Positions 26,709-52,069 of a DNA stretch of 64,000 bases are shown in pieces. A program made the translations under genes and the position numbers. This DNA is from Sporobolomyces roseus (Eukaryota > Basidiomycota > Microbotryomycetes > Sporidiobolales > Sporidiobolaceae). The notes beneath the pieces were generated by a model, which made no database searches, was not told the DNA's origin, and was given only the letters and a program-made list of their open reading frames with translations. Every line of letters begins with the position of its first letter. Position 1 is the stretch's first letter. Location: contig JADILM010000004.1 in assembly GCA_016617785.1 (NCBI GenBank), positions 1,736,001-1,800,000 of the forward strand, read 5' to 3'.

Positions 26709-27204
26709 GCGAGATGGAGCTTGTATAGAGCCGAGGTGAAGTCACCGAGCATCACGGATTTGTCGAGATAGAAGTGAGGAGGATGCTGAGGGGATCCATT
26801 GACAGGAAGTCGACGGGAGAAATGGGTCGTTTTGAGTGCGACGAGTCAATTCTCCGTAAGACGTCGAGCAATCGTGAATTCGGGCGACTCTTTTGATTTG
26901 CTAGAGCCTGAAGACCATCAAATCGTCAGTCTCAGCTCGGTATCTTCTGATGAGCGGGACGAACCAGGTTAGAGAGTGCGCACCTCGACAGTCGACTTCG
27001 ACCTGTTGCCTTTCCTCCGAAATCGCTCTCCTTTATAAAGTGCCAGAGCACAGCCAAGCTAACTTCAGAGTTGGGATAGAGTATCAAGCAGAAAACGAAG
27101 CGTCGAAGCGTCGATAGCTCGCCAATCCCCCTCGACTTCTGACGAGAAGATTCGGTTTGATCTCGATTTCTCCCCAATGTTCCTCCTCAAATAACGATAT
27201 AGAT
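26709..27204. other. Intergenic, no gene seen
   Basis: About 500 bases lead to the 3' end of paralogue A. I see no motif-bearing frame, RNA gene or repeat. Confidence 0.4.
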
Positions 27205-28369
27205 CTACCGCCATACCTTGTCTCCCATATCATTGTCACCACCCTTCGCTTCTTGCTCGAACAACGCTTTAAATTCCTTCTCCCTCTTTTCCTTCTCCAG
27301 TCTCGACTCTCTCATTGAGATCTCCTCTCGATCTCGCCTAGAGTCCAGCATAAGAATTGATCCACCGATTGGTGGATTGTCGATGTTCTTGACAAGCGCG
27401 GGAAGTCTCGCTTGAGGTTCGATCAACGACTGCCATCGCATTATCAACTTCTGTATTTGTTCATGTTGCGCCGCAGTAGGCTGATGCACTATAGACAAAC
27501 ATCAGTCCACAGTCTGTCAGCTCGACCACTTACGAGAACAGGAGATCGTGATAGAAACGCACTTTCTGGTCGCTCGCCCGCAGTGGAACGACGCTCACTA
27601 CCGGGACCCACGACAACCGTTTGGCTTTGTAGTACTCCGTTGACCTCATCCCTCACTGTTTCAAGTCGTAACTCTGGCAAATCGAGACCGCGACCGAATG
27701 TTTCGAAATAGTCTTGTAGTGTCGTCGAGACTGCCTCGAATTGAGCTTCGAAGATAGCTGAACGCCTGCCGGAGATGTCCAGATCCTGGTCGAAGAGTTT
27801 CTGAGCGCGCTGTCTACCGGAATACACTCTGATCGAACACGAGCAAGCAACCGATCAGTCAGTCTGTTTCTGAAAATGAACCGACGAGCTTCGAGGTGAG
27901 AGAACGAAAGAGCTGCTCACCCGACATTAACCCCGATGAAGGCCAATGGAAGAGCTCTGATTGCGAATCTTCCAACTCCAATCACAACGTCGAAGCCAAA
28001 TCGTGCCCAGCTGCCTTTGTTGATCTTGGACTCTTCCTCAGCCCATCGCTTCAAGAACGGCCCCATACTAGACTTGAAGTCCACCGCTCGCCGATCGAAT
28101 AGGGGAGGAAACTGCCGCCTCCTCAATGCTGATCGCACTGTCCAAAGAAACGCAACGCCCAGCCCCAACGCGAATCCTCGACCTGACGCTTTATTTGTGA
28201 GGGATTCCCAGCGCGCTGCATGATTCCGGATGAGGTCCAAGTCGGAAGAGTCGACTCGAGATTGAAATTGTTGAGGGAGCGAAGTTTTGGCGAGGTATTC
28301 GATTCGACCCTTGTCGTCCGGCGATAGTCCTTCTAGAGGGTCGATCTTGCGGATTTCGATGCTGACCAT
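27205..28369 (-). CDS. Small two-helix membrane protein, paralogue A (unknown function)
   Basis: A protein of about 340 residues that I do not recognise by family. The N-terminal block IEYLAKTSLPQQFQSRV is followed by one hydrophobic stretch (ALGLGVAFLWTV, near residue 70) and a second (FAIRALPLAFIGVNVG, near 140). Downstream come AVSTTLQDYFETFGRGLDLP and then IMRWQSLIEPQARLPALVKN. The C-terminus is a charged helix rich in Glu, Arg and Lys. Three exons: the first intron falls after V-G-(GG), the second before the VHQPTAAQHEQ block. Paralogue B at 56.1 kb has the same intron positions and about one third identical residues. The region upstream of the two genes is far more alike than the proteins. 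Confidence 0.7.
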
Positions 28370-28379: not shown

Positions 28380-29046
28380 GTATGGAAGGTGGTAACGGTC
28401 AAAGGTGAGAACTTTCAGCTGAGAACCCTTCGAGATTTTTGGTCTTTTGTTCTCCAATCTCGCTTCGACTGTCACCAGCTTCATCCTGCGCCGACAGATC
28501 CACCTCTTCTCCGAGCCTTGAGGCTATCACGAGCTTGAACAGAGTCAGATCGCAAGCCCTGGAAGAGTGTCGAAGGTGGAAAGAGAGGAAAAGAGCATGG
28601 AACGTGAGTGAGTGAGGATGTTCGAGGGAGGCTGACTGAGGGAGCGAATGAGTCGAGTAGAGCTATGGATGGTTCGTGTAGCTTGAAGAGGCGTGTGAGG
28701 GGTAGGAAAGGGCGATTTTAGATGGAGAGTTGAGTCACGAGGTGAAAGGAAGGGAAGGGTCAGAGTGAGTGAGTAGACTGGCTCGCTATCTTACAGAGTA
28801 GCTCATGCGGATAGTGCCGGTGTCGCAAGGTTGCTGAACGTCAAGGTTGGACGAAGCGAAGAGGGAGAATCTCGAGAGTGAACCCGATTGGGCGGTCCTC
28901 ATAAGCGATGCTGGCGATCTCCTACAGGTCAAGTCGTATTTCCTAAGCGTAGAGTATGAAAGCAAGAAGTGAGGAGGGAAGAGAAGTGGGTCGCTCTCCT
29001 GCCTCTGTTCGAACATGAAACTTTCTGAAAACGTAAGAGTTCCCCT
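28380..29046 (-). repeat. Arm A of a long inverted duplication (upstream DNA of paralogue A)
   Basis: Read on the minus strand, this stretch parallels 55420-56105 on the plus strand almost from end to end. Shared runs include AGGCAGGAGAGCGACCCACT, TTCACTCTCGAGATTCTCCC, CGACACCGGCACTATCCGCA and TCCATAGCTCTACTCGACT. The best part, 28756-28846, matches 55621-55711 at 89 of 91 positions without gaps. Similarity weakens toward the start codons. It was presumably duplicated together with paralogues A and B as one segment. Confidence 0.85.
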
Positions 29047-29246
29047 TATTCGGCTCTCTCTCGTTCAGAAATACCCCTTCGACCTTGAGCTGCCCTCAAA
29101 GTGAGACGATAGATACACAGCGGCGAGATGTCAGAGAACGCGAGCGAGTCCCTCGATGCAATTTCGTTGCGATAAATCTGATCCTCGTGATTACAGCATT
29201 TCGAACAACAACTATGACCTCGAAGCAAAACACAAACAGCTCGAAC

Positions 29247-32200
29247 TCATCTCAGATCCAGCTCCACCGCCTCCTCGAGACTCAGCCCTTCCGTCGGCGA
29301 TGGAAACACGGTAATTTCCTTTTCTCCTTTCTGATTCTTCTCAATCATGAAGGATGCCTTCTCCTTCTCACTCCCTCTCTGTCCCCCCGCCTCCTTCTCT
29401 ACGACTCCGCCTAGTTTCTCCTGTACACGGAACAGACGTTCAGAGATGACGAGATTTTGACCAGATGCGAGATTCTTCAGGATTGAGGCTTCTTGATGGG
29501 TGTGGAGAGAACGGCGGAGAGAACGAGAGAAGAAGGAGGTGAGGAGATCAAGAGGGAACGTGTCGGGTATAGTTGGTAGAATCTGCGAGTTCAAAGTGAG
29601 TGAAGGAAGCGAAATCGGGAAAGGGAGAAGAGGACTTACTTCAATAGTGTCCAAATTCATAGCTTGACTATCTAGTATCTTCGCAACTCTCTTCTCACCA
29701 CCACCCTCTCCGTTACTCTGCAAGCTCATCTCGACCAATATTCTCGCCAACGATTCATTTCGTTTCGCTTCTTCTTCTCGTTTCGCAGCTGACGTGTGGT
29801 GCCGTCTGCTTCGTTTGAAGGGCAGTTGAAGTCGATCGGCAGTCGCTGTCGTGTCCGAAGGTACGAGAGGATCGCCAGATTGGAGGGAATAAGTTTCGGC
29901 TGATGAGAGATCTCGGAGGTTGTTAAGGAGAAGGGAGAGGGCTTGACGATCCAATTTGAGCTGTGAATGAGACCGAGAGTTGATCAGCGTCAACGTTATC
30001 AATGATGAACGGACCGTTCGACTGACCTTTCCGTATACGATTACCCTTTCCAAGGTCAATCTCAGACCCCTCATCTCCATCTCCTCCAATTCCCGCTTTG
30101 CGTCCTGCAAGTCGTACTTTGACGAGTTCGACAAGAACAGAATAGCTTTAAGTCGAACTCGATCGAGTAAAGCGAATTGAGAATCGGGTGAATAGCGAGA
30201 TGCGAGGAAATAGAGGAAAGTAGGAGGGGATGAGGTCGATGCTTCGAGTTGAGCGAAGGTCGTTTCTGTGCATGATTGTCGAGATCAGCGAGAGTTGGGT
30301 CAAGAAGGGCAGAAGAGAGACTCACCTTGTTCTCGTAGATGAGCTTTCGTATCCGAATCTTCGAGAAGCTCTCCTAATCTTCCGAGGTATCTCTTGACTA
30401 GATCCACGTGCAGTCTCGCGTCCTGTTTTAAGATTACCGCCGCTGATCAGTAAAGTGCTGGGTAGCTACTGGAGAAAGCAGAGCAAAACTCACGGTATCT
30501 CTTTCTTGCAGTACCGCACCCTCAAGGAATAGATCCGCTGCGTCCTCATCAACATCCCTCATCTTTGCAAAGAGTTCCCTCGTATCGAATCTCAACGTTT
30601 GTTTGGGATCGTTGAAAAGCTGTGAGATGGAATGAAGGAACACAAGTTAGTTGAAGTTCAAGCTTGAAGAATGCCAATCTCATCTCACCTTCAAGCCAAG
30701 TCCTCGATCCTGTCGTATCAGCCATAACCCATACTTCTCCGTTAAACCTTGATCTTTCACTTTCCATAACAAATCGAAAATCTCTCTCTTTAGATTCTTC
30801 AGATCGGCTTCATCGTCCTTGTACTCTCCCTCCACTAGCCTGTTCGGCGTGCTCGAGAACCGATCAGTTTCGTCGCGCTGGATGGTCGATCCGAGGAATG
30901 AACGAACTTTGTCCAAATCTCCAGTACTCTCTCACTCCTCCCTTTCTTCCCCGCCAACTCAGCAACCAAGCTATACATCCCAGCTCCAAGTAGGTTCTCC
31001 TCGACGATAGGTAAGACGCAATCGTTTTGACTCGCGAGGAGAACCTTGATATCCATTGGTCGATTCGCTTCTGCTAGGAGACTGACAAGTTTCGTATCGA
31101 CGACCTGTAGACCCTCACTGAGCGTGAGGCTCGGCCCGATAGACAGCAGACAAGATGAACAGAAAGCGCACCATATCTATTTTCCTCGAATCGTTACTCC
31201 TCCTGCCACCCACTCCTCTCTCGACTCCCGCCCCTGTCTCTCGTCTCGCGATCCTCCATTTCATCAGATAGCTCAGCAATGAATCCTTCGCGTCTTCCCT
31301 CATTCTCGTTCTCAACTCGACCGTACTCTGAGCAGTCTCGACTGATGGTTGGAGGTGAGGCGAGTAGTTGTGATTCAGGTTCTCCATGACTACTCTCCAG
31401 AACCTCATCATCAGTCACGGCAGAATATCAGAAGAAAGAAGGACATACTGTAATCATCGATCGTCTTTGCTTCTTCGATTTCCGAGCGGATTCCTCGAAG
31501 GACAGAAATTTGATCAGAGGAGGAAATCAGTTCGTTTACTCCTCCTTCTCCGTCCGAATCAAACATTCTAACGACAATACGTGGGTCGCAACCGGAAGAG
31601 AGGAAGTGATCAAAAGCCGTGCGAAACGACGTCTTTGCGAGTTCGAGGAATGCGAGTCGGAGGTGAATGTAACTCGCTTCAGGTGACTGTACGTCCAGAA
31701 GATCGTCGACGCATCAGCACGAGCTCACATCAGAGAGGTATGCGTCGAGTTAGAGAACGTACATTTGGAATCCCCTCGACGAGTTTCAAGCATTCCTCCC
31801 CCCTCCCTTTCTCCAACAAAGCATCCGCCTTCTTGACCAATGTCAGGGGACTCAAAGCCCACAGACTATTCCTGCCCACCAACAAAGTCCTTGTCCCTCC
31901 CCCTCCCCCTCCATTTCTCTTCTTCTCCCTCCCACTCCTACTACTCTTTACCGGCGTCATTGGTGCTTCCCCAACTCTCGCTTTCCTCAACCCCACATGC
32001 ACAATCTCCAATTTATTCATTCCGTTGAAACTACCTCCCAAGTCGAGCCCACCCGAGGTATGACATGATATGAGTGATTTTGGATGGAGAGGTGAGGAGG
32101 TGAGGTCGGTAAGTTGAATTAATTGGACGAGTTCTTGAGTCACGAGGGAATGAATTTCGATCGTATCGTTCCAGAGTAAGGCAACGGCATGATCATCATC

Positions 32201-33602
32201 CACGACTGGTTCATCTCCTCAAGACCTCTCAGCTACGTCTTGAAGGAGAGGTGAGAGAAGGGAAGAACGAACCTAATGAGCGTAAGTTTGAAGACCACTC
32301 CAAAGTACCTCTACAAGGTTCTCCTAGTTCATTGACAAAAACTCCGAGAGTAGTAGAAGCTGTATGAGATGCGATCAAGAACTCGTTGAATCCGACAGAA
32401 ACGATCGAAGGTCTTTGACGAGGGTCGAAATCGGATGGAGGAGTTTGACCTCCTTCGTTGGTTGAGGTAGAGGGAGATGTGGGACGTGGATAAGGATCGG
32501 GATTAGGAGCCTGTGCATCAACGCGAAGATCAATGTTCTGAACTGGGAAAAGGCATGAACGTTGAGCGAGAGACGACGCACTTGAGAGATTGGGAGTAAA
32601 GGTAGAGCTTCTGCAGCTTCCAAGTCTACAATCGAATAATTCTCTGAATCGGCCAAACAGATTCTTCCTCTTCGCAAGACCGCGAGATTCGCTCCTCCCG
32701 GCAGCGGTAGATCCTGTTTGACTCGCCAAACACTCAGCTCCACCTTCACGAGAGAGCTGATGAGAGGCGAGGGAAACATACCTGAATCGTATCTACTCCA
32801 GTATTCGAAATCGATAACCAATGAACGCTCCTCTTCTTAATCGCGATCAATTGAACCCTTTCCTCCTGACCCCCTGAGCCAGTCGATTGTACTTCGTCGT
32901 GATCGAGAGAATAGGTGATGATCCCTCGGAGAGAAGGGAATTGGTGTACGTTCAAAGGAGACAAGGAAGGGAAAGTTGAATGAAACGTTAAAATCCCCTC
33001 TGCGTTTCCCGCACTCGTCTCAGCACACTCTATTCAGACAGGCCTCAGAGAGTGCATGAAGACGCACCTGAGAGAATTATAGCTTTGTTTTGTAAACGAG
33101 GGAGGACTGAGAGTTTATCAACAGGTCTCCGCGAAGGACTCGGTGATTCGAACTCTTGCAACATTTCGAGTGCTTTCGTATGTTTGACCTGTAAGCTCAA
33201 CGGAGACTTGCCCATCAGTGCTCCCTTTCACGCAGATGGACAAGCGAGTGAACGTACATCCCTCCCTTTCTTCGGAGTCGCACCTATCGGACTCTCAACC
33301 TGCTCACTCTCGAGCTCCTTATCTACTCCATAACCCCTAACCTTCCCCTCTCCGTTCGAACTAATCCAAACCCTTCCCTCTCCTTGTTCATTCCCAACTT
33401 CCACTGCCCTGACACCACTCACTCCCTTCTTGAGACCCGTCGCATCCCCAACGAGTGAACTTGCGGTATTGAGTAAAGAGCCTAGAGTGTTGCGTGGTGA
33501 AGAGGGAGAGAGGGTTTGAGATGAGGTGGGGTGAGAGTGAAAGATTGAGGAGAGGAGCGGGTGGAGGGAGTAGGGTTGGAGCGAGGAAGTGGGAGAAGCC
33601 AC
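29247..33602 (-). CDS. VPS3: VPS3/TGFBRAP1-type CORVET tether subunit with CNH domain
   Basis: A large (about 1100 residues) endosomal tether protein of the Vps3/Vps39/TGFBRAP1 class. The N-terminal third resembles a CNH beta-propeller: GEGRVWISSNGEGKVRGYGV, SVHWLSISNTGVDTIQ, GGANLAVLRRGRICLADSE, SVGFNEFLIAS, then DDDHAVALLWNDTIEIHSL. The middle and C-terminus are helical solenoid, ending KLDRQALSLLLNNLRDLSSAE and FPLDLLTSFFSRSLRRSLHT, as in the Vps39 domains. About 15 exons. The open frame begins at a GTG (33602) within CCCATCGTGGCT. An in-frame stop lies 18 bases upstream and no AG acceptor occurs for over 100 bases after it, so no ATG start could be found. Vps3 rather than Vps39 is a judgement on overall look. 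Confidence 0.72.
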
Positions 33603-34139
33603 GATGGGCGGATTTAGTGGTTACAGGGGGAGGAATCCAAGTGGAAAGTTGATGGGGGAGAAAGGAGCGAACCCGAGAGGATTTTTCGCAGACTTTGTTA
33701 ATTTGGGAATGGTTCCGTCTTGATTCTTACTTGATCATGCGCTAGAGGAAACTCGCACGAGCCAAGGTAGGTGATCTCTCAGGACCGCCGAACGAGATCG
33801 AGAGAATCCTCGTCAAGTCGTGCGAAGTGAAAATTTCCTTGAGAATTATCGCGCAAACTCGTGTTTGCAGCGTCAGGACGACAAGGTATGGTGAGGAACT
33901 CGTCGTAAAGAAAAGGCATAAAAGAGGAGTCGTCAGGTGTAGGGAGCGAGGTGGAACAAAGAAGGAAGAGGAGGGTAAAACAAGAATAGGATGCACTACG
34001 AAAGGGGCGTTGCTTGCGAATTCAACAGAGAAGCAGTGAAGAGAGGTAAAGTATACTTCGGGGGATAGCGATGGAAGTATATAGCGAATAGTATGTCAAG
34101 AGGGAGAAGGGTAGCAGTCCGAGTGCGGAGAATCGAGGA
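33603..34139. other. Intergenic between VPS3-type and UBC7 genes
   Basis: This holds the promoter of the VPS3-type gene and the 3' untranslated region of UBC7, both on the minus strand. An ATG at 33737-33739 on the minus strand is followed at once by a GTAAGA donor, but no acceptor joins it in frame. Other open frames look random. Confidence 0.4.
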
Positions 34140-34974
34140 TTAGAGGTCGAGTTGTTGTCTGACGTGAGCCCTGATGGTTTCATCGTATTCTTCTCTTTGA
34201 TCTCGATACATTTTCTGCGAATGGGAATCCTCCCCCCATCAGTTCCTTGCGAAAGGGAAGTGATGAAAGAGTGAGAAGTGAACTCACGCAAGCGTCGATA
34301 TTCGCACCACTTTCCAAGTTGGGTTCTGTTCGCACAACTCCCGTGCATCAGCTGACGTTCGAGCAGATCAATATAAAGGAACGAGAGACGTACCAGCTAG
34401 CATACTGATGACTGACAACAAGATTTTCTCTACTGATTGAACCGGACTCCAACGTTCACTTGCCGATTCATACGAGTTTGGATCATCCCCCGGAGCGTGT
34501 AAGATCGAAATACAAACTTCTCCATTCGCATAGACTGCCCCTCCTCACACATCCTCATCAGCTTGAACTCGTCTAGAAAGGTGAGAGAGATTTCGACACA
34601 TACTATTCGGATGAAACAATGGAGGATCAAACCTCATTTTTGGAGGACTGAGAGGATAATCTCTCGGAAATTTCAATTCGGCTTGAAATACTCCTCCTTC
34701 GAATGGAGTGTCTTCGGGTCCACTGATCAAACACGACCATAAAAAGAAATCATCCTCCGAAACGGGTCCGGCAGTGAACATGGAATCTTCTGATTCAGAT
34801 GCTGTCAATTGTTTGTACTGTCCGATTGAGAGAGAGAGGAGAGGGTTAGTCGAGGGAGACGAGGGAGAGGGGAGGGGAAGTTGGATGATGAGGAATCACA
34901 AGAGGGGGGGCGAGATGAGGACGTACTTCAGTCATGAGTCGCTTGAGTGCAGTGTTCATACTTTGTCGTGACAT
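34140..34974 (-). CDS. UBC7: Ubiquitin-conjugating enzyme E2, Ubc7/UBE2G type
   Basis: An ER-associated degradation E2 of about 165 residues. It reads [16 protein letters not shown], then [51 protein letters not shown], the active-site block [16 protein letters not shown] with the catalytic cysteine, then [19 protein letters not shown] and SMLAEPN. The acidic loop insert after the cysteine ([17 protein letters not shown]) is diagnostic for the Ubc7/UBE2G group. At least four introns. It shares a 91-base divergent promoter with MMS19. Confidence 0.95.
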
Positions 34975-35065
34975 ATTTGTTTGAGTTCTTCGGTGGAAGT
35001 GAGTGGAAGGAGACTAAGTCGACCAAGAGAGAGAGACAGGTTCCGATTTTGATCAATCACGCTTC
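34975..35065. promoter_or_regulatory. 91-base divergent promoter UBC7/MMS19
   Basis: The start codons of UBC7 (-) and MMS19 (+) lie only 91 bases apart. The stretch holds an AAGAGAGAGAGACAGG purine run and a GATCAATCACG segment. Whether one or two promoters work here cannot be told from the sequence. Confidence 0.55.
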
Positions 35066-38000
35066 ATGTCGACTCGCTTAGCAATCCTGTTGAGGGGTTA
35101 TACCGCACTAGATGATACTCAATTACAAGATGCAAGTCAACCCAAAGATATCGCAGCTGGTCAGTGCTACTCTTCTCACTTTCTCTCAACTCGCTCTCTC
35201 ATTCTCATCTCGCTCTCCCCGATATAGGTCTTGTCGGAGGTGAATGGAAATTGATAGAGATCGTCAAAGGGCTACAGGATAATCTGACGAGCGAGAATGA
35301 TGCTGTCAGAAGTAGAGGTCAGTTTCCCTAATCTCTCCCTCTCCTCTTCGAAGATTGCGGCTGATCAATTTAGAAGCGATACATAGGCGTCAACTTGCTC
35401 AGTCAAGTCGTGATCAACCTCGATAACCAAGTATTGGATCGACAATCTAGTAAATCTCCCGAAACTCTCCTTTCGCAATTCTTTGCACGGAATCGCTGAC
35501 TCCCTCTCCGCTCTTTCATCGATAGTCAAAGTCCTGACGACATTCTTCACTACCAAACTCGCCGACAAACCTTCCCTCGTTTCCTGCACTTCAGCGCTCA
35601 CCCACTTGACCCAATCCGCCTCTTTCGGAACTCTCGAAGGACTCGAAGTGACAAGAGGGTACGCTCTCCTCTCCTCTCCTTCTTCTTCTCTCTCCCTCGC
35701 ATCTCCTTCCTCTCACTCACTCGCGATTCCTCGATTTCATAGTATTTTCGATTCAATCAATCTCAAATCCCATTCCCAATCGATCCGACACACCGTCTAT
35801 GTCCTACTCGATTCACTCATGACCCACTCCCGACCCGCCTTGTTGAGAATGAAACAAGAGTTTGTGAAAGGATATTGTTCGTTGGTCGAGGGAGAGAAAG
35901 ATCCGAGGAATTTAATGATCAGTTTCGGATTGATCAGAGTCATGTTGTTGGAATTCGAGGTCGAGGGAGTAGTAGAGGTACGTCTCTACTCTCAGCAGCT
36001 CGCGTGGCACAATGTGGATTGACTGATGGGTGTGTTTTTACGGCGAACAGGAGTTGTTCGATGTCACTTTCTGTTATTTCCCCATCACGTTCACTCCGCC
36101 GAAAGATGATCCCTATGGAGTCACTTCGGAAGATCTGATCCTATCTCTACGGTGCGCACACTTCCTCATCCTAGCCACAGCCTAGAGTAAGAGCTGAGAC
36201 GAGGCGTAGCGTCTCACAGATCTTGTTTGTCGGCTACACCTTTGTTCGGACCTCTAGCTTTGCCTCTCTTCCTCGACAAGCTTCAGGCTGCATCAGAAAA
36301 AGCAAAGGTGTGCTTTCGATCGCTCCACGATTTGCTCGCGTTGACCGGTTAGCTAATCGGAGAAGTCTTGGTTCGAATTCCACAGCGTCAAACACTCGAA
36401 GCTCTCTCGGCCTGTTTCCCGATTTACGGCGCATCAACTTCTGGAGACTGGGCAGGTCGATTCTCCGAAGCTTTATCAATCGAAGTATTCCACGCGACCG
36501 AGACTTCAATCCAAGACCTCGCTCTCATCACTTTTCACTCCCTCTTTTCAACACTCTATCCCGACTCGATACCGGAGAAGAAGGAAGATAACGATGAGAT
36601 CATGGCTGATAGAGAAGAGAGGATTGAGGGGATCGCCGTGCAGGTTGTGAGGAATAGTTTGGATGAATTAGAGGAACCCGAGAAGAGTAATGCGAAACCT
36701 GCGCTAAGGATTCTCGTCTCCCTCATCGCTGCTTCAAGTACGTCTCTATCTCTGGATGCGACTCCCTTCAATGCGACTACAGATACTGATCAACTTTGAT
36801 TGTTCGTTACAGATCGATTAGCGAAATACGTCCTTTCAGAAACCCTCCCACTCCTCCTCAAGCACTGTCAGAACCCAGATGACCTCTCTCAAAAGCCCTC
36901 GGCACTCTCTCACATCGCTTCACTCCTCTCCTCGCTCTCCCCCTCAACCTCACCTGAGCCCATTCTCCCGTCTCCCCTCGTTCCAACTACACTCGATTTC
37001 TCTCTCCCCTCCTCTCCCCTTCACCCTCACCTCGATACCCTCCTGACCCTCTTCACCTCTTCCACTTCCCGCTCTCAATCCTCCCCAACGCGCCTCGCAG
37101 CTCTGAATGGTTTGATCGCACTAATCAAGCTCCCCGGTTTCTTGTCCGAATCACAAGAGATCGGATTCTGCGTCAACTCATTCAACGAGATCCTCAGTGA
37201 CTCTCACGAAGAAGACGACGAAGTCTACGACCTAGCACTCGAGAACTTGATCATCGTCTCTAGAATCTACCCTTCAATAATCGAGGAAACTACTTTCCCA
37301 CTCTTGTTCTCTTCCCTTCCGACCCCAACCGAACCGAATGAACCTTTGGGAGAACTTTACAAACGATCCTTACCAGCCTTGGCGGCTCTCTCGATCCCTC
37401 CGAATTTGTTCGAAATCCTTTCCCTCCGATTACTTTCTCTACTCGATACGACTCTATCACTCCCTTCTACACCTCGAGCAACCCTCTACGCTCATCACCT
37501 ATTGTTGATCTTGATCAGTACGATCAAGAGTAAAGTGAAAGCTGGGAAAGGGTTCAAAGAGGATTTGGAGAAATATTTGGAGAATGGTTTTGTCGGGAGA
37601 TTGTTGGGGATGTTTGTGCTGCCAACCTTGGATGAGGGTGGTGATGTGGTCGCGAAGGATCCGAGGTTGTTGTTGGATGCTGGGAGGGTTTTGGGATTGA
37701 TCTTGCAGAGATTCGGAGCTGAGTGCGCTAAGTCTCCTCGTACTCATCTACCCAGCGAAGCTGATGACGGAAGATTTCAACGGCACAGACGTCAAGCGAC
37801 TTTCCGGAAGACTATCGATGAGGCGTTCCAACGAGGGAACGTGCAACCTTTACTTTCCACTTCCTCTTCAACGAGTTTCTCTCCATTCTCCGTGAGTTTG
37901 GCATCTCCTTCAGTATCTCGTTATTATACTGAAGGCCTCCAATTCGTCACAGTCCACCTCCTCAATATCACAACAGAACCTCCTTTCCCTCTACGTTTCC

Positions 38001-39232
38001 CTTCTCCTTCCCTTACATCCCTCCGTCCCGCTCGCTCCCTCAACCCAGCAACTCATCGAGCTCTTCCTCACCCGCTCAATAGAGTCCCAGAACGAGTTAC
38101 AGCTAGAGTCAGGGTTGTTTGCGTTGGCGAGTTTGATCAACAAGAGGATTGGGAAAGAAGAATCCTTGTGGCTTGAGAACAGAATGAAGGAATTCTGGGA
38201 GGCTCAATTAAGCGGGAGTGTCGAGGAGGGGAAGAGGATGAAAGGGTTGAGGGTGTGGATCTGGGTTCGTTCGAAGTCTGCTTTCAAACCCTTAGATCGT
38301 TTACTGAGTACCGTCATCGCTGCGAACAGGTCGCGAAAGCACTGATAGTTCGATCAGATCCTTTCGGATATCGAATGATTGAGGACTTGCTCGAGTTGTT
38401 CAAGTCGGGAGATGCTGGAGACGGAGGGTTTGGAAGAGAAGTTGCGAAACAATTAGGAGTGCTTGTTGAAGCTGAGGGGGATGTCCTGAGCAAAGAGAAT
38501 CACTCGGCCATTCGTGTAAGCTTCTTCTCTGTCTATCTCTCTATAGAGTGAGACTGATCCATTTGGAGGAGCTTTACAGTTGTTGTACAAACAAAGATTT
38601 TTTACTTTCTTATTACCGAAACTCGTCGAAGCTCACAAAGCACAACAAACCACTTCAACTGGTGACTCGGCGGTCTACCTCATTGCTCTGTCCTCGCTCC
38701 TTCAACATCTGCCGAAACAGCTCACTTTGACCGAACTGCCAAAAGTATGTCTTCTGCTCTCTTTCTCCCTCTCCACTACGTTCGTGTTGACCCTTTCGAT
38801 CTATGTAGCTCCTACCACTACTGATCACCTCACTTGATCTACCCGACCCGATTCTTCGTTCGAATGTGATCTCAACCCTCTCGATCTTAGTTCGAGAAAT
38901 TCCCGAAACTCTCGAACCTTCAATCTCTTCGATCGCTCTCAAGACTCTGAAATCAGCTACTACTCCTTCAAACTCCCCAGGTTCAATCGTTCGTTCTCTT
39001 CTCTCCTTCATCGTGATCCGAAACTGATGAAGCCAGGAGGAGTAAACAGAAATTGAGATTGGCTTCTTTGGAGTTCCTCGGTTTGTTACCAGAGTACATT
39101 CCGTACCTGACCCTTCACCCTCAGAAGACGTTGGTACTGAAGGAATTAGGGATCAAAGCGATTGATGATCCGAAGAAAGTGGTGAGGAAAGCTGCGGTGG
39201 ATTGTAGATCAAAATGGTTCTCCTACACTTGA
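35066..39232 (+). CDS. MMS19: Mms19, cytosolic Fe-S cluster targeting factor
   Basis: A HEAT-repeat protein of about 1100 residues that delivers Fe-S clusters to DNA polymerases and helicases and acts with TFIIH. The N-terminal block reads LVGGEWKLIEIVKGLQDNLT, then GVNLLSQVVINLDNQVLDRQ after an intron whose acceptor is ACATAG. The body continues with FFTTKLADKPSLVSCTSAL, RGIFDSINLKSHSQSIRHTV, and ELFDVTFCYFPITFTPPKDD with PYGVTSEDL, a strong family signature. Helical repeats run to the end, closing KKVVRKAAVDCRSKWF. About a dozen short introns. Length is usual for the family. Confidence 0.93.
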
Positions 39233-39489
39233 ACACACTTGAACATAGATGGAATTTGCAACTGATGTTACTACACATTTGTTCTCTCTACTTGGGGAAC
39301 ACCGCTGAGAAAGAGAGAGAAGAAGTATGGAGAAATGTCAAAAATGAGTGTTTTGATACATCCAAGATTTGAGAGAAAAGCAAGACTACAATCAAGTACA
39401 ACGCAACACACATACGTACGAGGAGAGAAAAGAACGAGGAGTGATATAACTAGAGAGGAGTTAAGGAAATAGAATTGAGTGATGTTATT

Positions 39490-41608
39490 CTACTCTGCAA
39501 TAGCATCAATAGCTTGTTTCGCTTCTTCCCACATTGCCAGATTCTACTCAATCCATCCCAAAGCAGTATCAGTACTCTGGATCTAATCTGGGTAGAGTGA
39601 AAGGAAAAAGTGCTCGCCTTTTCTGCCCATTCTTTGTGGAACTCTGAGAAATCCAAACACATCTCTCTCAAATCCCCTACTTTCTGTCTCTGGAACCGAT
39701 CTAAATCTCCTTGAATCGTACTGGAAGCCCATCTCAGATCAGCAGTCAAAGCTTTGATGGCATCATCCAGCTACGATCGAACGGATTTGATCAATTTCAC
39801 AGCGAGCGAGAGCGAGGAGAGAGTATAACTTACTTGGTTGATTTGTTCACGAGTCTTTGAAATAGTGTTTCTTCTCGAAGCTTCAGGATCTGAATCGACG
39901 AAACCTTTCACCGAATGACTGAGAGCGCTCAGCAGTCCACTCTTTCTCCCTACGCTCCCATTCGTCACTGGTGGCAGTGGTGGTAATGGTTGATGTTCCC
40001 CTCCTCCTGCGCTTGGCTCTTCTCCACCGTCGACACTCCCTCCAACTTTGACTCGATCTAAAGCTTTCGCCAATCGTTGCGCCTCCAATTCACTCCGCTC
40101 TAACTCTTCCAAAGTTGATCGTTTCGATTCGAGTAGTTCTCGAGAGGATTCGAATTGGAGATGTTTCTGATGTCGGTACTTGAGGAGTCCTTTGATGATG
40201 GTTGAGAATTGAGTGTATTCTTGTAAAGGTTCTGTCCATTCTTGTTCCCAACGACTCAACTGTGGCGTCTCCCTCCCTTACATCAACTCTTGATCGTGTG
40301 ATTCGATACAATAATGAGATGGAAGTGAGAACTCACCATCGCATTCGTCAAAGTATAACCCGCATCAACCGCCATTCCCACTTTCTCAGTAGCCTCGTCC
40401 AAACCCCCTTGACCGTCCTCTCCCATTCTCAACGCGAACCCATTCATGCCTCCTCCCATCTCTGACCAATCCCCTCCCAAATCGTTCCACCTCTTCATCA
40501 GCCTCCTATTAACCTTCTCCATCGACCCACTCAAATGGTTCGAGAATTTAGCGGTAAAATTCTCTGAATCCAAGAACCTCTGATCTGGATGTTGTAACCC
40601 CCCACCATTCGTTAATGAACTAGTCGAAGTCGAAGGTAGAGGGAGGTTTGCGAATAATGCGAGAAGGTCTGGATCGGTTGGATCGGAAGCTGCTGCTCGG
40701 AGTGGATTCTTGGGGACCAAAGTGATTGGAGGAGAGTGTAACACGTCCAACCATGGAATCTCGGGATCGAGGAATCTAGTGAAAACTCGATCTTTTCCTA
40801 GAACCGAGTGAGCTAACGTTCGATTCAGGAATGTTGATAACATTCGTCGACGGCGTGCGATCAGTGCGACATCCTCTTTCGCTTTTGAAGGGTTCGTACC
40901 CGCGATCGCGTAAGAAGAGAGGGAGTTTTTTGGGGGAAGTGGTGGGACGACGAAACATGGGTGAAGAGTCGACAATGCTTGTCGGAGTGAAACGAAATCT
41001 GAATATCTTCGTCTTACTTCTCGTCCCTGTATCTCATTCGAGGAGAGTCAGCTACCGAGGAGAGAAGGGAGGGAAGTGAGAGAGAGAGAGGGATTCACCT
41101 CGTACCGAATACAATAAACTATATATGCCGCACTCGCACCTTCACTCGTCTTTAAAGCATCTACAATCTATCTCACAAACGCCCTCCCTTGATCAGTAAC
41201 TGTATCCCTCAAAAAAGAAGTAGATTTCCCCTCTTCGAAGAGATCGTCATCCGAGATTGGAGACTTGAGTTTGATCAAACGTACCTGTATGATTTCTCTA
41301 TTTGTTTTCTGATAACTATCTCTTTCCTGTTGTTGTCCTCCTGATCCCGTCACGATAGGAGTTTGAGGTAAAGGAGGACTCGTCGTCACTTGCTCCTCCT
41401 CCTCTCCTCCTCTCTCTTCTCGATCGTCCTCTTGTGTATGTTGTGCATATGGATCAGCTGAGAATGGGTAGGCTGCTGAAGTTACTGGTTGAGATTGAGA
41501 GGGAGAGGAAGGTTCGTGGGGAGATGAAGGAGGAGAAGAGGAACTGAAGGGAGAAGGGTCAGATGAGAATGGGTTCACTTCGTCTACTGGTGAAGAAGGT
41601 GAAGACAT
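39490..41608 (-). CDS. ATG20: Sorting nexin SNX41/ATG20 family
   Basis: An endosomal and selective-autophagy PX-BAR protein of about 600 residues. The first 120 residues are disordered (NPFSSDPSPFSSSS, PFSADPYAQ). The PX domain follows: SAAYIVYCIRY, REVRRRYSDFVSLR, LHPCFVVPPLPPK, then ALIARRRRMLSTFLNRTLAH and RFLDPEIPWLDVLHSPP, which match the Atg20/Snx41 group. The BAR-like half has WNDLGGDWSEMGGGMNGFAL, QEYTQFSTIIKGLLKYRHQK, and closes with MWEEAKQAIDAIAE. A poly-Ser/Pro insert lies inside the BAR part. I chose the ATG at 41608 (MSSPSSPVDEVNPF); the frame is open to 41698. Confidence 0.9.
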
Positions 41609-41893
41609 CTGGTATAGCGAGACTCGAGCAGTAAACTGACGAGATGAGGAGGACGAGAATGCGATGCAATTTTTCGAGGAGAAGCAACGTCTCAACAATC
41701 GATCAGATTGAGCGGCGGGAGAACAGCTATCATGTTACAGAGAAAATTACAAGCAACAGTATAGGCGCAAAAAAAGGCAAAGAAATCGACTCGATAAAAC
41801 CGAAACAGTCAACGTTCGCAACGCCTCGAAAACCTCCTTCTCTCTTCACGGATCAGCACATCTCGATGTCGGAGCTGTGATCAAATGTAACCA

Positions 41894-43749
41894 CTACACA
41901 TTCAGCTCTGCAGAAGCATGAGAAGCGCGTGTAGCGAGACTTCAACTCACGGATCCAATCCAATCCTAAAATCCTGAACAGTTCCTTCTCACTCCTCGCG
42001 ATCTCAACCTTATCCGTCTCCCTACTCCTCAATCCACCAGCATCCAATATCCAACCCCTATCCCTCACTCGCCGATCAGCTGATTCCCTGAAATCTCGAG
42101 CGAGAGAGAGAGGGCAACAAAAAAACTCACTTCTTTTCAGCCCATCTTCTCAAATCCCGATTGAACTGAGTACTACCCGTCCAAGCCTGTAATGCACTCC
42201 CCCGAGTATCCCAATTGACCACAATCAGATCCAACCTCCTGAATTTCGTGACAATCCTTCCTCCAGATCTAGTGACGGGTAAACGGAAAGTAAGAAACGC
42301 TCGATCTAGAGTGTCGAGTCGTGAGGAAGGAGCGTTGGAGATTGAGGTACGAGAAGAGGCGGGGGTTTGGGAGGAATGAAGAGTTGCTATGAAACCTAGT
42401 GAGATTGGATGATGAGCGGCGAACGGAAAAAGGAAGATAGGTGGTTGTGAGAGGGTACCTTTCACTCGTAGACGTTCGATAAGCTCTCCTAGTAGTCCTC
42501 GTTCGTATCCTTCCCTGTAATCGTCGAGTCATGAAGAGAGAAGAGAGAGAAGAGGCGAGTCAAGCTAGTTAAGTCAGTGACTGATTCTGTGCGAATGCGA
42601 AAAGCGAGCGCATTTGTATGCTTACCGATGAGGATAAGTGATCAAAAGGTCGACATCGTTCGAGTGTGTTTTGCCTCTCCTGTACCTATCAATGTTCACA
42701 GTACGAAGAATCAGAATCAGCTCGTTCTCGATCTCCTTTTCTGAACTTCCCGCTCATGTATCTCCTCCCTTCTCCTTCTCTCTACTGATCGAATTAGTCA
42801 GAAAGAGCGTTCATACTTACCCACCGCAGATCTCGACGAGAGCTTCCACCTCAGGCCTACATTTCGCAATTTGAACCTTGACGAATTCCGCAATCAATTC
42901 GACTTCTTCCCTAGGGATCCTACACTTTGCTTATCTTCTCATCAGTCTTGTATACAGGTGGAGAAATAAGAGAATTAGGGAGGAGAGAAGCGTACTTTTC
43001 TTGTAAATCTTCATAATGCTCAAGTTGTGAAACGTACAAATTTCGATCTCGTAAATCTTGGATCGTTCGAATTCCTTGTTCGTACAATGAATGCGCAGAG
43101 TTGAAACCTTGTCCGAGTCGAAAACTACCTATGAGTGTTGCGCAATGACTGATAGGGAGCGACGAGCGAACCTATTCCGTGAACAGTTTGTAATTCTTTC
43201 AAAGCGAGGAATTTTTCATTCGTCTTCAAATCAACTGTACGCAGATGGCGTACGAACACTCAGTCGTGTATGACTTGAGAAAGAGTGTAAAGAGGAATGC
43301 TATAAAACGTACTAGCTTCCTGTATTTTCCCAGTTTCGAGGAATTCCTGAACTTTCAACGAAATCTTCTCCCCAATCTGTGCATTCTCTCAAGCAGTACT
43401 TCAGCCTCTTCCTTACATCAGAGCTGGAGCGTAGACTTCAACACACCTTGGGTAACCTCCTAGCCTGTTCAACCGTTTCGATCTTCTCAGGAGACCCTAT
43501 GATCGTCGAAACAGCAGTGGCGTAGCTGATTGACTCCTTAGGTGCCGTTCCATAAACTGTGAATCTATACTCGCGGAGAGGAGAGAGTGCGTCGACGAGG
43601 GATTGGTTGATGCAGGGTTTGAGAGAGATTCTGCGGCATGCGTAAGAAGGGACCCGGCAGAAGGGATCGTTGGAAGATGTAGGACAGGAATCTGAATCAG
43701 AGTCAGAGTCTGAAGCCGCAGGAGCAGGGAGGGAGGGAGAAATAGACAT
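41894..43749 (-). CDS. POL4: Family X DNA polymerase (Pol4/Pol lambda-like)
   Basis: A repair polymerase of about 455 residues. The 8-kDa region reads SYATAVSTIIGSPEKIETVE and ARRLPKIGEKISLKV, and a helix-hairpin-helix follows (ELQTVHGIGSFRLGQGF). The catalytic core has CGGYRRGKTHSNDVDLLITY, holding two of the three metal-binding aspartates (D-x-D). The third lies in FRRLDLIVV. ALQAWTGSTQFNRDLRRWAE and LFRILGLDWIQLNV close it. These blocks are firm Pol X signatures. No BRCT domain is visible before the 8-kDa region, only a short Ser/Asp-rich stretch, so it is shorter than Pol lambda or Pol4 of many fungi. The ATG chosen is 43749; an earlier frame opening at 43815 has no ATG. Confidence 0.9.
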
Positions 43750-44527
43750 GAGAAATGGAAAAGTGAAGAGAAGGAAGGCAAGAGCAGAAATTGCAATTTC
43801 GCACAGTTTGGACACATCTTACTCCGCGGAGTTAGAACACACTCGTCTCTGGTCCAGTAGAACGTCGAATTAGCGAGAAGTAGGGCTGTGTTGGTAATAA
43901 AATATCGGTTCAAAACAGATCTGAAGTCGGGTCAGGCTCAGAATATAATACAAAACGACGTTTTAAACGGTAATAAATGCAATTGCAAGGACAATACAAA
44001 AGCTGCATATCGGCAATAGACAGAGCGCACAAAGCAATGGTTCAGGCAGGCTTGAGTGTCTTACACTATAGGTGACACTCTAGAGCAGGTTGAGAACGGA
44101 ATCGGAGAGAGGAGAAGCAAGAATTGACGAGAAGCGATTCGGAAGCGGTTTGTGCGGAGTGCGAAACTCGTGCTTCTCTCTCTCGCTAATGTCCAAAGGT
44201 AACGTTCTGACTCTTTCTGCAGTGGTTGGTTGAGCAGTCTACCCCGCTGAAGCTGCTGAGGAGCCCTCAAGTGCCTGCTGGACAGAGTGATTTACAACAA
44301 TAAAATACACACCTCCGCGAGCTCTCGTGTTTTAAACTCGTTTAAAACATGTATTAAATGTTTTGTTTAAAACATTCGGATTTACAACAGAGCCCTAGCG
44401 AGAAGGAAGCTATAGTCGGAAGATTGAATCTGTAAACTTCCTTGACCTTCGAATTCTCTCAAAACGAAACCCACTTTCACCCTTCTCTCTCTCTCTCTCT
44501 CTTTCCTTCACTTGCCAACGACGAGAA
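43750..44527. other. AT-richer intergenic region with palindromes
   Basis: Nearly 780 bases between the divergent Pol X and PTPA-like genes, richer in A and T than the rest of the window. It includes several TTTAAA cores (43960, 44332, 44341, 44367) and ends with a (CT)n run at 44487-44504 before the PTPA-like start. I see no coding frame. A replication origin or promoter role is possible. Confidence 0.45.
44289..44389. repeat. Nested palindromic element flanked by 11-base direct repeats
   Basis: GATTTACAACA occurs at 44289-44299 and again at 44379-44389. Between them are two back-to-back hairpins: GTTTTAAAC-TC-GTTTAAAAC (44329-44348) and AATGTTTT-GTTT-AAAACATT (44357-44376). Both arms are perfect. 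The layout resembles a very small inverted-repeat element with a target duplication, or a protein-binding site in a promoter. Confidence 0.6.
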
Positions 44528-45753
44528 ATGCTACCTCGAATCGACCCTGACACTCTACAAGCGAATTTGACACTCGATAGGAAGATCTTGACTGAAAGGG
44601 ATCTAGTAAACTGGCAGAATTCCTTGACGTTCGAATGGATTCAAGAATACCTCAACGAACTCATCGAGGGAAGCAAACAGCTAGGAGACGACAAGGGGAC
44701 AGGTCAAGTGAGTTCACAGTCTCCTTGACGGGGTGCGATGAGCTGACTTTGTCAACAAGATTTCGCACCGTTCAGGTCATTCAACAACTCGTTCACTTCC
44801 TCGATCAAGTCTCAGAGCTCTGCAATCAACACGAACAAGGTAGTAGTCACACTTCAAGTAATCACAAACATCAAGATTTCGTTGAATTCCGTTCAAAACT
44901 TTCAAGGTTGATCACCTCACTCCACTCCTCTCTTCCTTCCCTCCCTACCGCCGCGCTCCCCGAACTCAAGTTTCACCTAACGCGTTCATTCGGCTCAATC
45001 TCTCGGTTGGATTACGGGACATCCCACGAACTCTCCTTCCTCCTCTACCTCCTCGTCCTACGCCTCACCTCTTCCCTCTCAGCCTCCGACTCGACTCCCA
45101 CCCTCAAACTCTTCAAGCAATACTGGGAAGTCTCAGAGCACGTTCGAAAAACGTTTGGATTGGAAGAAGCTGGGAAGAGAGGGGTTTGGAAGAAGGACGA
45201 AGAAGGGGGAGGTAGGATGTGCTTTGATTCGGGAGCTAGTCAAGCGAGAGGTATTTCTTTCATCCCTTCCCCTCTCCTTGATCTGATCTGACTGATTGAG
45301 AGTTCGAGTGTAGGTCATCCATCTCGTTCTTCTTCCTCCCATTCACTCCCGACACTTCAGTCAACCCACTCATCTCCTCTCTACCTCCTCCGTTCCCTCC
45401 TCTCCGCACCCAATTCAAGTCCCTCTCAATCCCGTTCTCCGACTCCATCGAACTTACTCCCACTCTACACATCCCAAATCCTCCTCTCCCTCCCCGCTCT
45501 CCTTCACCTTCGTTTTGGTCCTTACCTACCATTCTCGAGTGAACAAGGTGCGTTGGAGAGTAGTGCGGATGGGTTGAGTAAGGAAGAAGAGGCAGAGTTG
45601 GAAGGAATGCAGGATGAGAGAGTTGGGGGAGAAGGGACGGTCGCTCCTTGGAACGTACCCAAGTTGAGCGGGGAAGAGGATTGGGACGGATTCAAGATCA
45701 AGGAGAGGAAAGTAAGTGAGGGAATTGTACCGGTTCAATCGAGGATGGGATGA
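44528..45753 (+). CDS. Divergent PTPA-like protein (degenerate PP2A activator paralogue)
   Basis: About 375 residues in three exons. The N-terminus RKILTERDLVNWQNSLTFEW aligns with the KIFTATDLEPWFSS start of the PTPA gene at 10 kb. The signature FGSISRLDYGTSHELSFLLY is kept almost whole, and YTSQILLSLPALLHLRFGPY matches the late MYREEVLAKVPVVQHLRFG block, followed by a GTVAPW near the end. But RFGNKAFRDW and the GVWGLDDHQ loop, central to the fold's activity, are missing; there is only GVWKKDEEGGG. It may be a fungal RRD2-type protein that has lost catalytic features, or a regulatory relative. Codon use resembles neighbours. Confidence 0.75.
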
Positions 45754-46218
45754 GTAAGGAGGGGAGGGGGGGTGGGGGAGGAAATGAGTGGAGGAATTGA
45801 AAGGACTCGAGGAAGAGAAACTGAGACCGCTTGAAATTCTGAGGAAAGGGAAGGGAAGGTTGAACTTGGTTTCGTAGTTTGTTTTCTTTTTTTGCGATTT
45901 GCAATCTTCTGAATAAAAGTTGTGTTTTGCCCTCTCCAGTCGCCCATGAGCAGAGCGCTGGCCTATTGGTTTCCGTTCGCAGAGAGTGAGAGATGCTACC
46001 TGTGAGAGCGACAGGCGAGGGAGAGCAAAATAAAGCTCCAATCCTTTCTCCCGCTGCCTGACTTTATAGGTCGAGATGAAAAGGTCATAATAGTATTGCG
46101 ATACACATCAAGTCGTACAGTAAGATCTATTCTGATTCAAACCTTATCAGCAACTTTCCTCAGAAACATGATCAAGAAACGAAAGAAAGAAAGGCCAACT
46201 CACCTAAGACAAACACAG
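45754..46218. other. Convergent intergenic region
   Basis: 465 bases between the ends of the PTPA-like gene (+) and the DUF1746 gene (-). A long purine run (AGGAGGGGAGGGGG) follows the first stop codon. Nothing else is evident. Confidence 0.4.
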
Positions 46219-47301
46219 TCATATCACTCCACCTCCTGTCCCTGTTCTACTACCACTCGCTCCCCCAATTCCGATCCCTTCTTCTTCCCTAGTCATATCA
46301 AACACTTCTCGATCCTCTTTCGCTCTCCTACTACTCCATTTCACTTCGTTCCACACATGTCGGAATCGTAGTTTGGCTATTGGAGGTACGACGATGCGTT
46401 CACGAGTATTCGTTCGTGAGCTAGTCGAGAGGGAGGAAGGAAGTTTCGAGGTGGAAGTTGAAGCTGAAAGATAGGTTTCGTTTCGCAAAACAAAGGAAAT
46501 CGATTGAGCATGATTCTCCTTGATCCTTCTGCGGAGAGCTTTGAGAAACGACGTACCATAGTCGTTCAGCTCCAGGTCATCGTCATCGTCGAATATATTG
46601 TCCTCATCCTGGTTTCCTACTTCCTCGTACGCGTTCCCACTTCTCCTTCGTTTCCTTCTACTTCTCCTTGCAACTTGCTCTATCCTCCTCTCTTCCTCCT
46701 CCAATTCAAACTCCTCATATCCGATTCCCTCAATCCCATCTCCTTCCTCCTCCACCACACTCCTCTCATGTAACCCCAACAATCCAAAATAATCCCTAGC
46801 TGCCTCTCCACCAGTACCATCTCGATTCGTTTCCGTCTCCCCATTTGCAGTCGAAGCGTCCAAATCCGATGGTAAAGTGATTGAGAATGAAATCGTAATC
46901 GTCAAGAATTGAGCGAGTGCGATCAATAAATCCAAACCCAATAAGTGATTCGTACTAGGTTTAGTTCGTTGTCCTATGAAATCTACTATGATCCCACTTT
47001 GAGTCCAACCATTCCCTTTAGTCCCTCTCGAACCCCAGGCCGAATCGACTAGAATCACTACGAAGTTACTCACTCCCCAAAGTAACAAAAAGAATCGTAG
47101 AGACCTGTTTGGATGGGATTTACGGGGGGTCGAGTATTGAACTGAGAGGATCACGCGGAGGAGAAAGGTCGGGAGGGAAGAGGGGGATAGGAGGAGAGAG
47201 TGAAGGGTTAGGAGGTAGGAGAGTGTTGAGAGAGAGAAGAGGAGGTGGAGGAGGTAGGCGGATGCTTGAGGTGCTGCTGCTGAAGGGGAAGGGGTAGCCA
47301 C
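46219..47301 (-). CDS. DUF1746 family membrane protein
   Basis: A 360-residue protein in one exon. The N-terminal half is hydrophobic with about three or four membrane segments (YLLHLLFSLSTLSYLLTL, FFLLLWGVSNFVVILV, LDLLIALAQFLTITISF), with QSGIIVDFIGQRTKPSTN between them. The G-x-x-x-DF-x-GQ block is what I recall of the fungal DUF1746 domain. The C-terminal half is charged and disordered. No methionine occurs near the start: the frame opens at a GTG in CCACCGTGGCTACC, an ideal start context save for the first base. TAG-TAA lies in frame just upstream. The next in-frame methionine is near the end of the chain. Confidence 0.7.
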   Translation of the reverse strand: MATPSPSAAAPQASAYLLHLLFSLSTLSYLLTLHSLLLSPSSLPTFLLRVILSVQYSTPRKSHPNRSLRFFLLLWGVSNFVVILVDSAWGSRGTKGNGWTQSGIIVDFIGQRTKPSTNHLLGLDLLIALAQFLTITISFSITLPSDLDASTANGETETNRDGTGGEAARDYFGLLGLHERSVVEEEGDGIEGIGYEEFELEEEERRIEQVARRSRRKRRRSGNAYEEVGNQDEDNIFDDDDDLELNDYGTSFLKALRRRIKENHAQSISFVLRNETYLSASTSTSKLPSSLSTSSRTNTRERIVVPPIAKLRFRHVWNEVKWSSRRAKEDREVFDMTREEEGIGIGGASGSRTGTGGGVI

Positions 47302-47457
47302 GGTGGGTGGTTACTATTTGAGAGGAAAGTGAGAGTGGGAGGAAAGGCAAACAACAGATGCGGGAACGTTTAATTGAATCCCCCCGAGTTTACTTTTGAT
47401 TCTGTACCATTCACTTCTTAGCTCTGTTCAAAGTACACGATACGAGTGTAGTGTCTT
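47302..47457. promoter_or_regulatory. Divergent promoter DUF1746/disordered protein
   Basis: 156 bases lie between the GTG that opens the DUF1746 frame (-) and the ATG of the next gene (+). A short CCCCCCGAG run lies in the middle. No named element is seen. Confidence 0.45.
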
Positions 47458-50139: not shown

Positions 50140-50435
50140 ATAGTTCACTGTAGTCTCAGGGGGGAAAGCGTTATAATTTGGCATGGCGAAACAAGTTGGA
50201 AAGCTTTAACTAGGATTTGCTTCAGCTTTTTGCGACTTGCGGTCAGAGAGTGAACGTTAATAGCGACTGTATCACTCTCCCGTTGTGAGAATCCTCAGAT
50301 TGGATGACGAGATTCGAATAATGAATCGACAAAACGAATGCGAAAGCCAAAAAATTGCTCTTCTTCCCCGTCTTCTCACTTCCAGTCTCTCGATCGCTTC
50401 TCAATCGCCTTACCCACCATTCTCAGCTATACAAT

Positions 50436-51539: not shown

Positions 51540-52069
51540 AAGAAGTGAAGGAGATTTGGGAATAGTTAGGAAGAGAAGTAGTGCTTGAACGAAAACGAAG
51601 TTGATCGCACGAAACGAAGAATCGATGCTTTTCTCGCGTCACAATCGCTTGACCTTGCCTGGGATACAGAGTCGCCTCAACATTGACATTGTAGAGGCTG
51701 TAAGTGGGCTCAGGCTCGACAATCTGACAGCTTCGTCGCTTCGCAAGGAATCAATTTTCCGGGAAGGGAAAGAGACGGGGTGAGGGCGGTATCTCTTCTT
51801 CTTGGACGCTCAGCTCGAAGCACATCAGTAAGATAGAGTCTCTGAGCTCGTTCGTCACCTAAGCTAGCTTGTCGAAAGTATTGCGAAAACATTCGAGTCT
51901 TTTGAGCGAGACGTGGAAGATCTCAAACTGTACCATTCACCTCAAATTCAAGACCCGACACAAGTACAACAAGTCAAGCCCCGATATATCACACTCTTAC
52001 GACAGTGCTCGCCCTTCTGCGCTCTCCCCTCTTTCTGTCCACCTCATCACACTTTGACAAGAAAAACAG
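51540..52069. other. Intergenic, no gene seen
   Basis: About 530 bases before the acidic-protein gene. Short frames only. The last 60 bases are a CT-rich leader ending AAGAAAAACAG before the ATG. Confidence 0.4.

What the first reader, a model, noticed from the sequence alone, without database searches (positions are those of the whole stretch)
28380..29046. Inverted duplication where non-coding DNA is far more conserved than the proteins
Arms at 28380-29046 (-) and 55420-56105 (+) lie immediately upstream of paralogues A and B, about 26.5 kb apart in opposite directions. A 91-base block is identical at 89 positions, while the adjacent proteins share only about a third of residues. Either gene conversion keeps re-matching the arms, or the block is under strong selection as a promoter, enhancer or RNA. 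This is the strongest unexplained structure in the window.
Basis: partly seen in the sequence, partly recalled or inferred. Interest (0 to 1): 0.8.

Follow-up and report, generated by a model that had tools for sequence, protein, structure and literature searches.

The report
Recently matched upstream DNA of paralogues
Two old, very different sister genes in a fungus-like genome carry nearly the same stretch of DNA just upstream, most likely because that stretch was copied from one gene's flank to the other long after the genes split.

Summary
An inverted pair of 632 and 653 bp (28419-29050, 55415-56067; 81.5% over 654 columns) lies just upstream of two paralogues, and no further copy was found in the 22.4-Mb genome. 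The best 91-column stretch has 2 mismatches. The coding regions are far older: 4-fold sites match at 11 of 37, the chance level.

Mismatches in the arms look young: 65 of 114 are transitions, like 3' flanks of a duplicated histone pair (72 of 121) and unlike the two genes' third codon positions (61 of 158). The arms therefore share a later ancestor than the genes.

No RNA family, unusual fold or codon constraint was found. The identity profile fits a smooth peak slightly better than separate islands. Gene A also shares its 3' end at DNA level with a third, distant family member 120 kb away.

Best reading: ectopic gene conversion between the inverted 5' flanks, perhaps with some constraint on the core. 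One duplication by a staggered-break inversion, and pure selection, remain rivals. Without DNA from relatives this cannot be settled. It is a new instance of a known process.

The parts
28419..29050 (-). arm A: 5' flank of gene A
   Evidence: blastn against arm B, 533/654 columns; profile
55415..56067 (+). arm B: 5' flank of gene B
   Evidence: same alignment; only other copy found in the genome
28756..28847 (-). conserved core in arm A: 92 columns, 2 T/C differences
   Evidence: list of differences; best 91-window
55620..55711 (+). conserved core in arm B
   Evidence: column mapping, differences
28789..28902 (-). 38-codon ORF in arm A, also open in arm B; no sign of codon constraint (2 synonymous, 6 nonsynonymous codon changes)
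27205..28369 (-). gene A, 339 aa, introns 27829-27920 and 27481-27533 (model by hand)
   Evidence: exon matches
56106..57028 (+). gene B, 258 aa, introns 56450-56518 (GC-AG) and 56794-56870 (model by hand)
   Evidence: exon matches
26896..27309 (-). second DNA-level patch: 3' end of gene A, 80% identical to the 3' end of gene C at C4:1643037-1643453
29051..55414 (.). 26.4-kb segment between the arms, with matches to MMS19, PX domain, PTPA and DUF1746
   Evidence: Pfam matches

Best explanation
Genes A and B are ancient, inverted, linked paralogues of a small family without a Pfam match; gene C, 120 kb away, is probably a distant third member. Their 5' flanks recombine with each other as inverted repeats: one flank is used as template to repair the other (ectopic gene conversion), so the flanks are re-matched while the coding regions, already too different to pair, keep diverging. 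Shown, by the substitution patterns: the arms share a more recent ancestor than the coding regions. Inferred: that the copying was conversion, that it happened more than once and most often over the centre, and that the arm contains the promoter and 5' leader, so that the two genes also keep a common control region.
For: Synonymous saturation of A/B: 11 of 37 four-fold sites identical (chance 0.25), 33 of 76 identical codons against 27.7 expected. Arm mismatches 65 transitions, 49 transversions; 4-fold mismatches 8 and 18, all third positions 61 of 158 transitions; arms against third positions P = 0.003, arms against histone 3' flanks P = 0.79. A gradient centred near 28780 (BIC 579.8) beats constant divergence (602.6), two-state islands (588.1) and three states (617.6), and still beats constant after trimming the ends (492.0 against 506.9). 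Ends are sharp: 21/25 next to 10/25 columns near 29030-29055, 20/25 next to 10/25 near 28425-28450. The arms sit at the same place relative to the start codon in both genes (about 50 and 39 bp). Gene C, related to A (E 3e-5 without the tail; score 80 against at most 73 in 1000 shuffles), has no arm upstream. A second patch, shared at DNA level by A and C, again lies at matching gene positions.
Against: No relative's DNA was available, so the defining test of conversion was not made. Two sequences cannot separate repeated conversion from one copying event followed by uneven constraint. The gradient beats islands by only 8 BIC units, and the A-C tail shows no gradient (413.6 against 412.7 for constant). 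An island at about 28960-29030 is 68 of 75 columns identical and is set off from the core by stretches at 72-80%, which a single peak does not explain. The excess of transitions is clearest in the inner zones (28 of 43) and weaker in the outer ones (37 of 71).
Confidence: 0.55

Rival explanations
1. One duplication event: the 26.4-kb segment was inverted through staggered breaks, which leaves an originally single-copy stretch in inverted orientation at both breakpoints. The copy landed upstream of B, and the core was later kept by constraint or chance.
For: Originally single-copy DNA flanking a segment in inverted orientation is the mark of this process, and in that Drosophila study 4 of 14 breakpoints lay between already duplicated genes, so breaks near paralogues are not far-fetched (PMC3355041, passages). 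The orientation fits: the A-near end of arm A corresponds to the B-near end of arm B. The ends are sharp. Another local inversion with inverted ends is suggested in the window, since parts of 22521-22616 and 26896-26990 map to the same stretch of L010 in opposite directions.
Against: It makes it a coincidence that both breakpoints lie within about 50 bp of the start codons of two paralogues, in matching register. It does not by itself explain 2 mismatches in 91 columns beside 19-33% in the outer zones.
Confidence: 0.18
2. Selection alone: the arm is an ancient promoter, leader or regulatory block inherited with the gene duplication and held by purifying selection while the proteins diverged.
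For: The position upstream of both genes; the core is far more alike than its surroundings. In the duplicated histone pair the divergent promoter is more alike than the 3' flanks (18 mismatches in 454 columns against 69 in 357 and 52 in 181), so promoters here can be constrained.
Against: After synonymous saturation the free sites in the arms should also be saturated, yet transitions are 65 of 114, far above one third (P 2e-7). By my arithmetic from the 51 differences in the central 398 columns, more than 80% of those sites would have to be fixed. Gene C of the same family lacks the block. Sharp outer ends.
Confidence: 0.2
3. The arm is coding or an upstream ORF: a 38-codon ORF (28789-28902), possibly a first exon with a GT (A) or GC (B) donor.
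For: The ORF and its stop are open in both arms, with 17 identical residues near its C-terminal end; one of the two core differences is synonymous and the other turns GT into GC at a possible donor.
Against: Changes are 2 synonymous and 6 nonsynonymous codons, against 26% synonymous expected by chance; no three-base pattern is visible in the counts over the arm (no formal test). The core runs on past the stop codon. No relative was found in the protein database, though that search may miss short ORFs.
Confidence: 0.04
4. The arm is a noncoding RNA gene or a mobile element.
For: Strong conservation without codon pattern.
Against: No Rfam match at gathering score or up to E 5; fold z-scores -0.93 to 0.73 for 6 stretches; only two copies found in the genome.
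Confidence: 0.03

Closest known systems
Interlocus (ectopic) gene conversion between linked paralogues, e.g. the inverted hsp16 modules and tandem col-12/col-13 of C. elegans (PMC3966223, passages seen)
   Same: A tract much more alike than its surroundings, with diverged DNA beside it; for hsp16 also inverted neighbours.
   Different: There the coding part is the homogenised part and the flanks diverged; here the 5' flank is alike and the coding part has diverged. The hsp16 modules are 416 bp apart, the arms here 26.4 kb.
Inverted duplications at inversion breakpoints made by staggered breaks, Drosophila inversions 2h and 2q (PMC3355041, passages seen)
   Same: Originally single-copy DNA in inverted orientation at the two ends of a segment.
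   Different: Those duplications are about 1 to 7 kb, and an ancestral gene order showed the inversion. Here no ancestral order was available, and both copies hold the same place relative to two paralogues.
[quoted passage not shown]
   Same: Proposed inverted-repeat recombination and possible repair by conversion in a basidiomycete.
   Different: There the repeats are the genes themselves, in the mating-type locus; none of the Pfam matches in this window points to that locus.

Membership tests
Ectopic gene conversion tract | Tract more alike than homologous sequence beside it | tested here: met
   517 of 631 ungapped arm columns against 11 of 37 four-fold sites, Fisher P 3e-11
Ectopic gene conversion tract | Substitutions in the tract young, not saturated | tested here: met
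   65 of 114 transitions against 61 of 158 at third positions, P 0.003; clearer in the inner than the outer zones
Ectopic gene conversion tract | Paralogous copies within a species closer than orthologous copies between species | not testable with these tools
   No DNA of relatives could be reached; exact patterns gave 0 stretches in viral contigs and genome contigs, which are not fungal collections
Staggered-break inversion duplication | Single-copy DNA in inverted orientation at both ends of a segment | tested here: met
   Two copies found, inverted, 26.4 kb apart
Staggered-break inversion duplication | Segment inverted relative to an outgroup that has one copy | not testable with these tools
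   No outgroup genome held (one search states that the genome has no relatives here)
Constrained regulatory block inherited from the gene duplication | Free sites as old as the gene duplication | tested here: not met
   Arm mismatches unsaturated, P 2e-7 against one third transitions
Constrained regulatory block inherited from the gene duplication | Conserved islands rather than a smooth profile | tested here: inconclusive
   Two-state BIC 588.1, gradient 579.8; one side island at about 28960-29030
Conserved coding exon or uORF | Excess of synonymous changes | tested here: not met
   2 of 8 changed codons synonymous, 26% expected; small numbers
Structured RNA gene | Rfam match or unusually stable fold | tested here: not met
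Mobile element | Dispersed multiple copies | tested here: not met
   2 copies found in 22.4 Mb; terminal repeats and target duplications not tested

The most novel reading that the evidence does not exclude
A self-sustaining conversion island: the inverted promoter-leader modules of two diverged genes are kept matched by repeated conversion, and this is selected because it keeps the genes under one control while their proteins diverge, so control regions evolve in concert and proteins do not.
Probability: 0.17. Interest if true: 0.6.

Novelty: new member of a known kind. Interest (0 to 1): 0.36.

Why it matters
In the conversion cases I read about the coding regions are matched; here the upstream DNA is matched while the coding regions have diverged to saturation. 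If it is repeated conversion, it shows how two genes can keep a shared control region after their proteins have parted, and it warns against reading paralogue noncoding similarity as constraint.

Tried and rejected
RNA gene: no Rfam match, no unusual fold in 6 stretches, no tRNA. Tandem repeat: none at 28000-29500. Coding exon: ORF in both arms but no codon constraint. Assembly copy: arms differ by 18%. Same-age segment duplication: coding sites saturated. Ancient segmental duplication of the whole window: 966 ORFs of 40 or more codons compared with each other at E <= 1e-4 gave only pairs from the arms, A/B, the histone H3 copies with their flanks, and two PTPA genes.

Finding relatives: gene A as a spliced protein gave none of 5918 candidates at E <= 0.001, but by the tool's length rule that query reaches only proteins of about 186-593 aa, so single-exon predictions were out of reach and the negative says little. 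A single-exon control gene at 6853-8805 found 15 proteins, the best at 98, 86 and 69% identity (only the 7994 candidates sharing most words were scored), so relatives do exist in that database. The arm ORF with upstream codons found nothing.

Survey for similar patches: 2600-22500 of the window gave 7 matches elsewhere in the genome (7 of 8 candidates scored), all 72-80% identical and at most 230 bp. 29060-48000 had candidates that could not be scored, so that part is unknown. 1-2600, 22500-26000, 48000-55050 and 58500-64000 were not searched as DNA against the whole genome.

Full report
Setting. The window is C4:1736001-1800000 of an unnamed 22.4-Mb genome in 15 contigs. Short introns and the Pfam match DUF1746, described as a fungal domain, point to a fungus; that it is a basidiomycete yeast is my guess, not a result.

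The observation. The arms 28419-29050 and 55415-56067 are 81.5% identical over 654 columns in inverted orientation. Over 631 ungapped columns there are 114 mismatches; the best 91-column stretch has 2. No third copy was found at the thresholds used. Identity falls to about 10 in 25 columns just outside both ends. The arms end about 50 bp (A) and 39 bp (B) before the start codons.

The genes. Models made by hand give A 339 aa and B 258 aa, with the first intron at the same place and phase; in B its donor reads GC instead of GT. A and B match at 79 of 248 aligned residues; codon positions match at 118, 134 and 90 of 248. Neither A, B nor C has a Pfam match up to E 1. At 37 four-fold sites with shared first two bases, 11 match, as expected by chance; 33 of 76 codons for shared residues match against 27.7 expected. 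The genes have thus been apart long enough to saturate silent sites.

Age of the arms. If the arms were as old as the genes and merely constrained, the sites that did change should also be saturated, with about one third transitions. Transitions are 65 of 114, P 2e-7 against one third. By zone they are 16 of 31 (28906-29050), 8 of 11, 4 of 9, 16 of 23 and 21 of 40 (28419-28539), so the excess is clearest inside. Third codon positions of A/B have 61 of 158 and four-fold mismatches 8 of 26. The 3' flanks of a histone gene pair duplicated between the window and C4:1641-1643 kb have 72 of 121. The arms behave like those younger flanks. So the arms share a later ancestor than the genes they serve.

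Shape. Mismatch density rises smoothly with distance from about 28780: BIC 579.8 for a gradient, 588.1 for two-state islands, 602.6 for constant, 617.6 for three states; the gradient survives trimming. This is what repeated short conversion tracts inside a limited homology would give, but a constrained core would look similar, and one island at about 28960-29030 breaks the smooth picture.

A second patch. Gene A's last 34 or so codons and about 300 bp beyond are 80% identical to the 3' end of gene C, 120 kb away. C and A look distantly related: E 3e-5 without the shared tail, score 80 against at most 73 in 1000 shuffles, and the first intron at the same place and phase. B and C are not detectably similar (134 of 1000 shuffles as good). 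Differences in the shared codons are 5 synonymous and 7 nonsynonymous. C has no arm: in the 10-kb stretch around it the best match is 24 bp and lies elsewhere than upstream of C, where matches are 12-15 bp. So A carries DNA-level patches matching two different relatives at matching gene positions. This second patch shows no gradient and its transitions are 40 of 81, so it may be older or differently made.

Function. No Rfam match, no unusual fold. A 38-codon ORF is open in both arms but changes as neutral sequence does. The gene-side half of the arm looks pyrimidine-rich on the coding strand (by eye), as leaders and promoters of fungi often are (recalled); that the arm is the promoter is inference from position.

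Mechanism. The favoured reading is ectopic conversion between inverted 5' flanks on one chromosome. A single staggered-break inversion gives the right orientation and sharp ends and is known from Drosophila (PMC3355041, passages), where breakpoints between duplicated genes were also seen; here it needs both breakpoints to fall at the same place before two paralogues. Conversion between inverted neighbours is known from C. elegans (PMC3966223, passages). PMC3749932 (passages) describes conversion among coding sequences while promoter segments behave differently, about the reverse of this case. PMC12510652 was seen in passages only. My literature searches gave listings and starts of abstracts; I saw no report of this locus in them, and they cannot show that none exists.

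Limits. No DNA of relatives, no transcripts, two sequences only, hand-made gene models. The protein database holds relatives, but its three searches are used, and it gives no DNA.

Noticed in passing
window 22521-24602: A divergent histone gene pair (H3 by PF00125; its partner read by eye as H4) is duplicated in inverted orientation at C4:1641-1643 kb, 1878 of 2120 columns identical. Exon bins are mostly 98-100% identical; the promoter has 18 mismatches in 454 ungapped columns, the 3' flanks 69 in 357 and 52 in 181.
   Followed up: partly
window 26271-26619: The 3' end of a histone H3 gene with its 3' flank lies just past the 3' end of gene A; the histone search found no further H3 exon beside it.
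   Followed up: partly
window 22521-22616 and 26896-26990: Both appear to map to one stretch of L010 (5038-5133) in opposite directions, as expected at the ends of a small inversion of about 4.4 kb.
   Followed up: no
L038 and L039 (C2:576000-595999): A 4.25-kb inverted duplication, 96.6% identical, arms about 5.5 kb apart, containing histone H3.
   Followed up: no
window 9372-10527 (-) and 44596-45288 (+): Two different PTPA genes on opposite strands in one window, 45% identical over 100 columns.
   Followed up: no
window 56450-56518: Gene B's first coding intron, by hand model, starts with GC where gene A's has GT, and a T/C change also separates the arms at a possible donor (28793).
   Followed up: no
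window 47452-48792: Weak match to the centromere protein Scm3, 20.0 bits, below the curated cut-off of 24.3.
   Followed up: no
window 6853-8805: A gene matching Trm732 repeats has relatives at 98, 86 and 69% identity in the protein database, so close relatives of this organism are present in public sequence data.
   Followed up: partly
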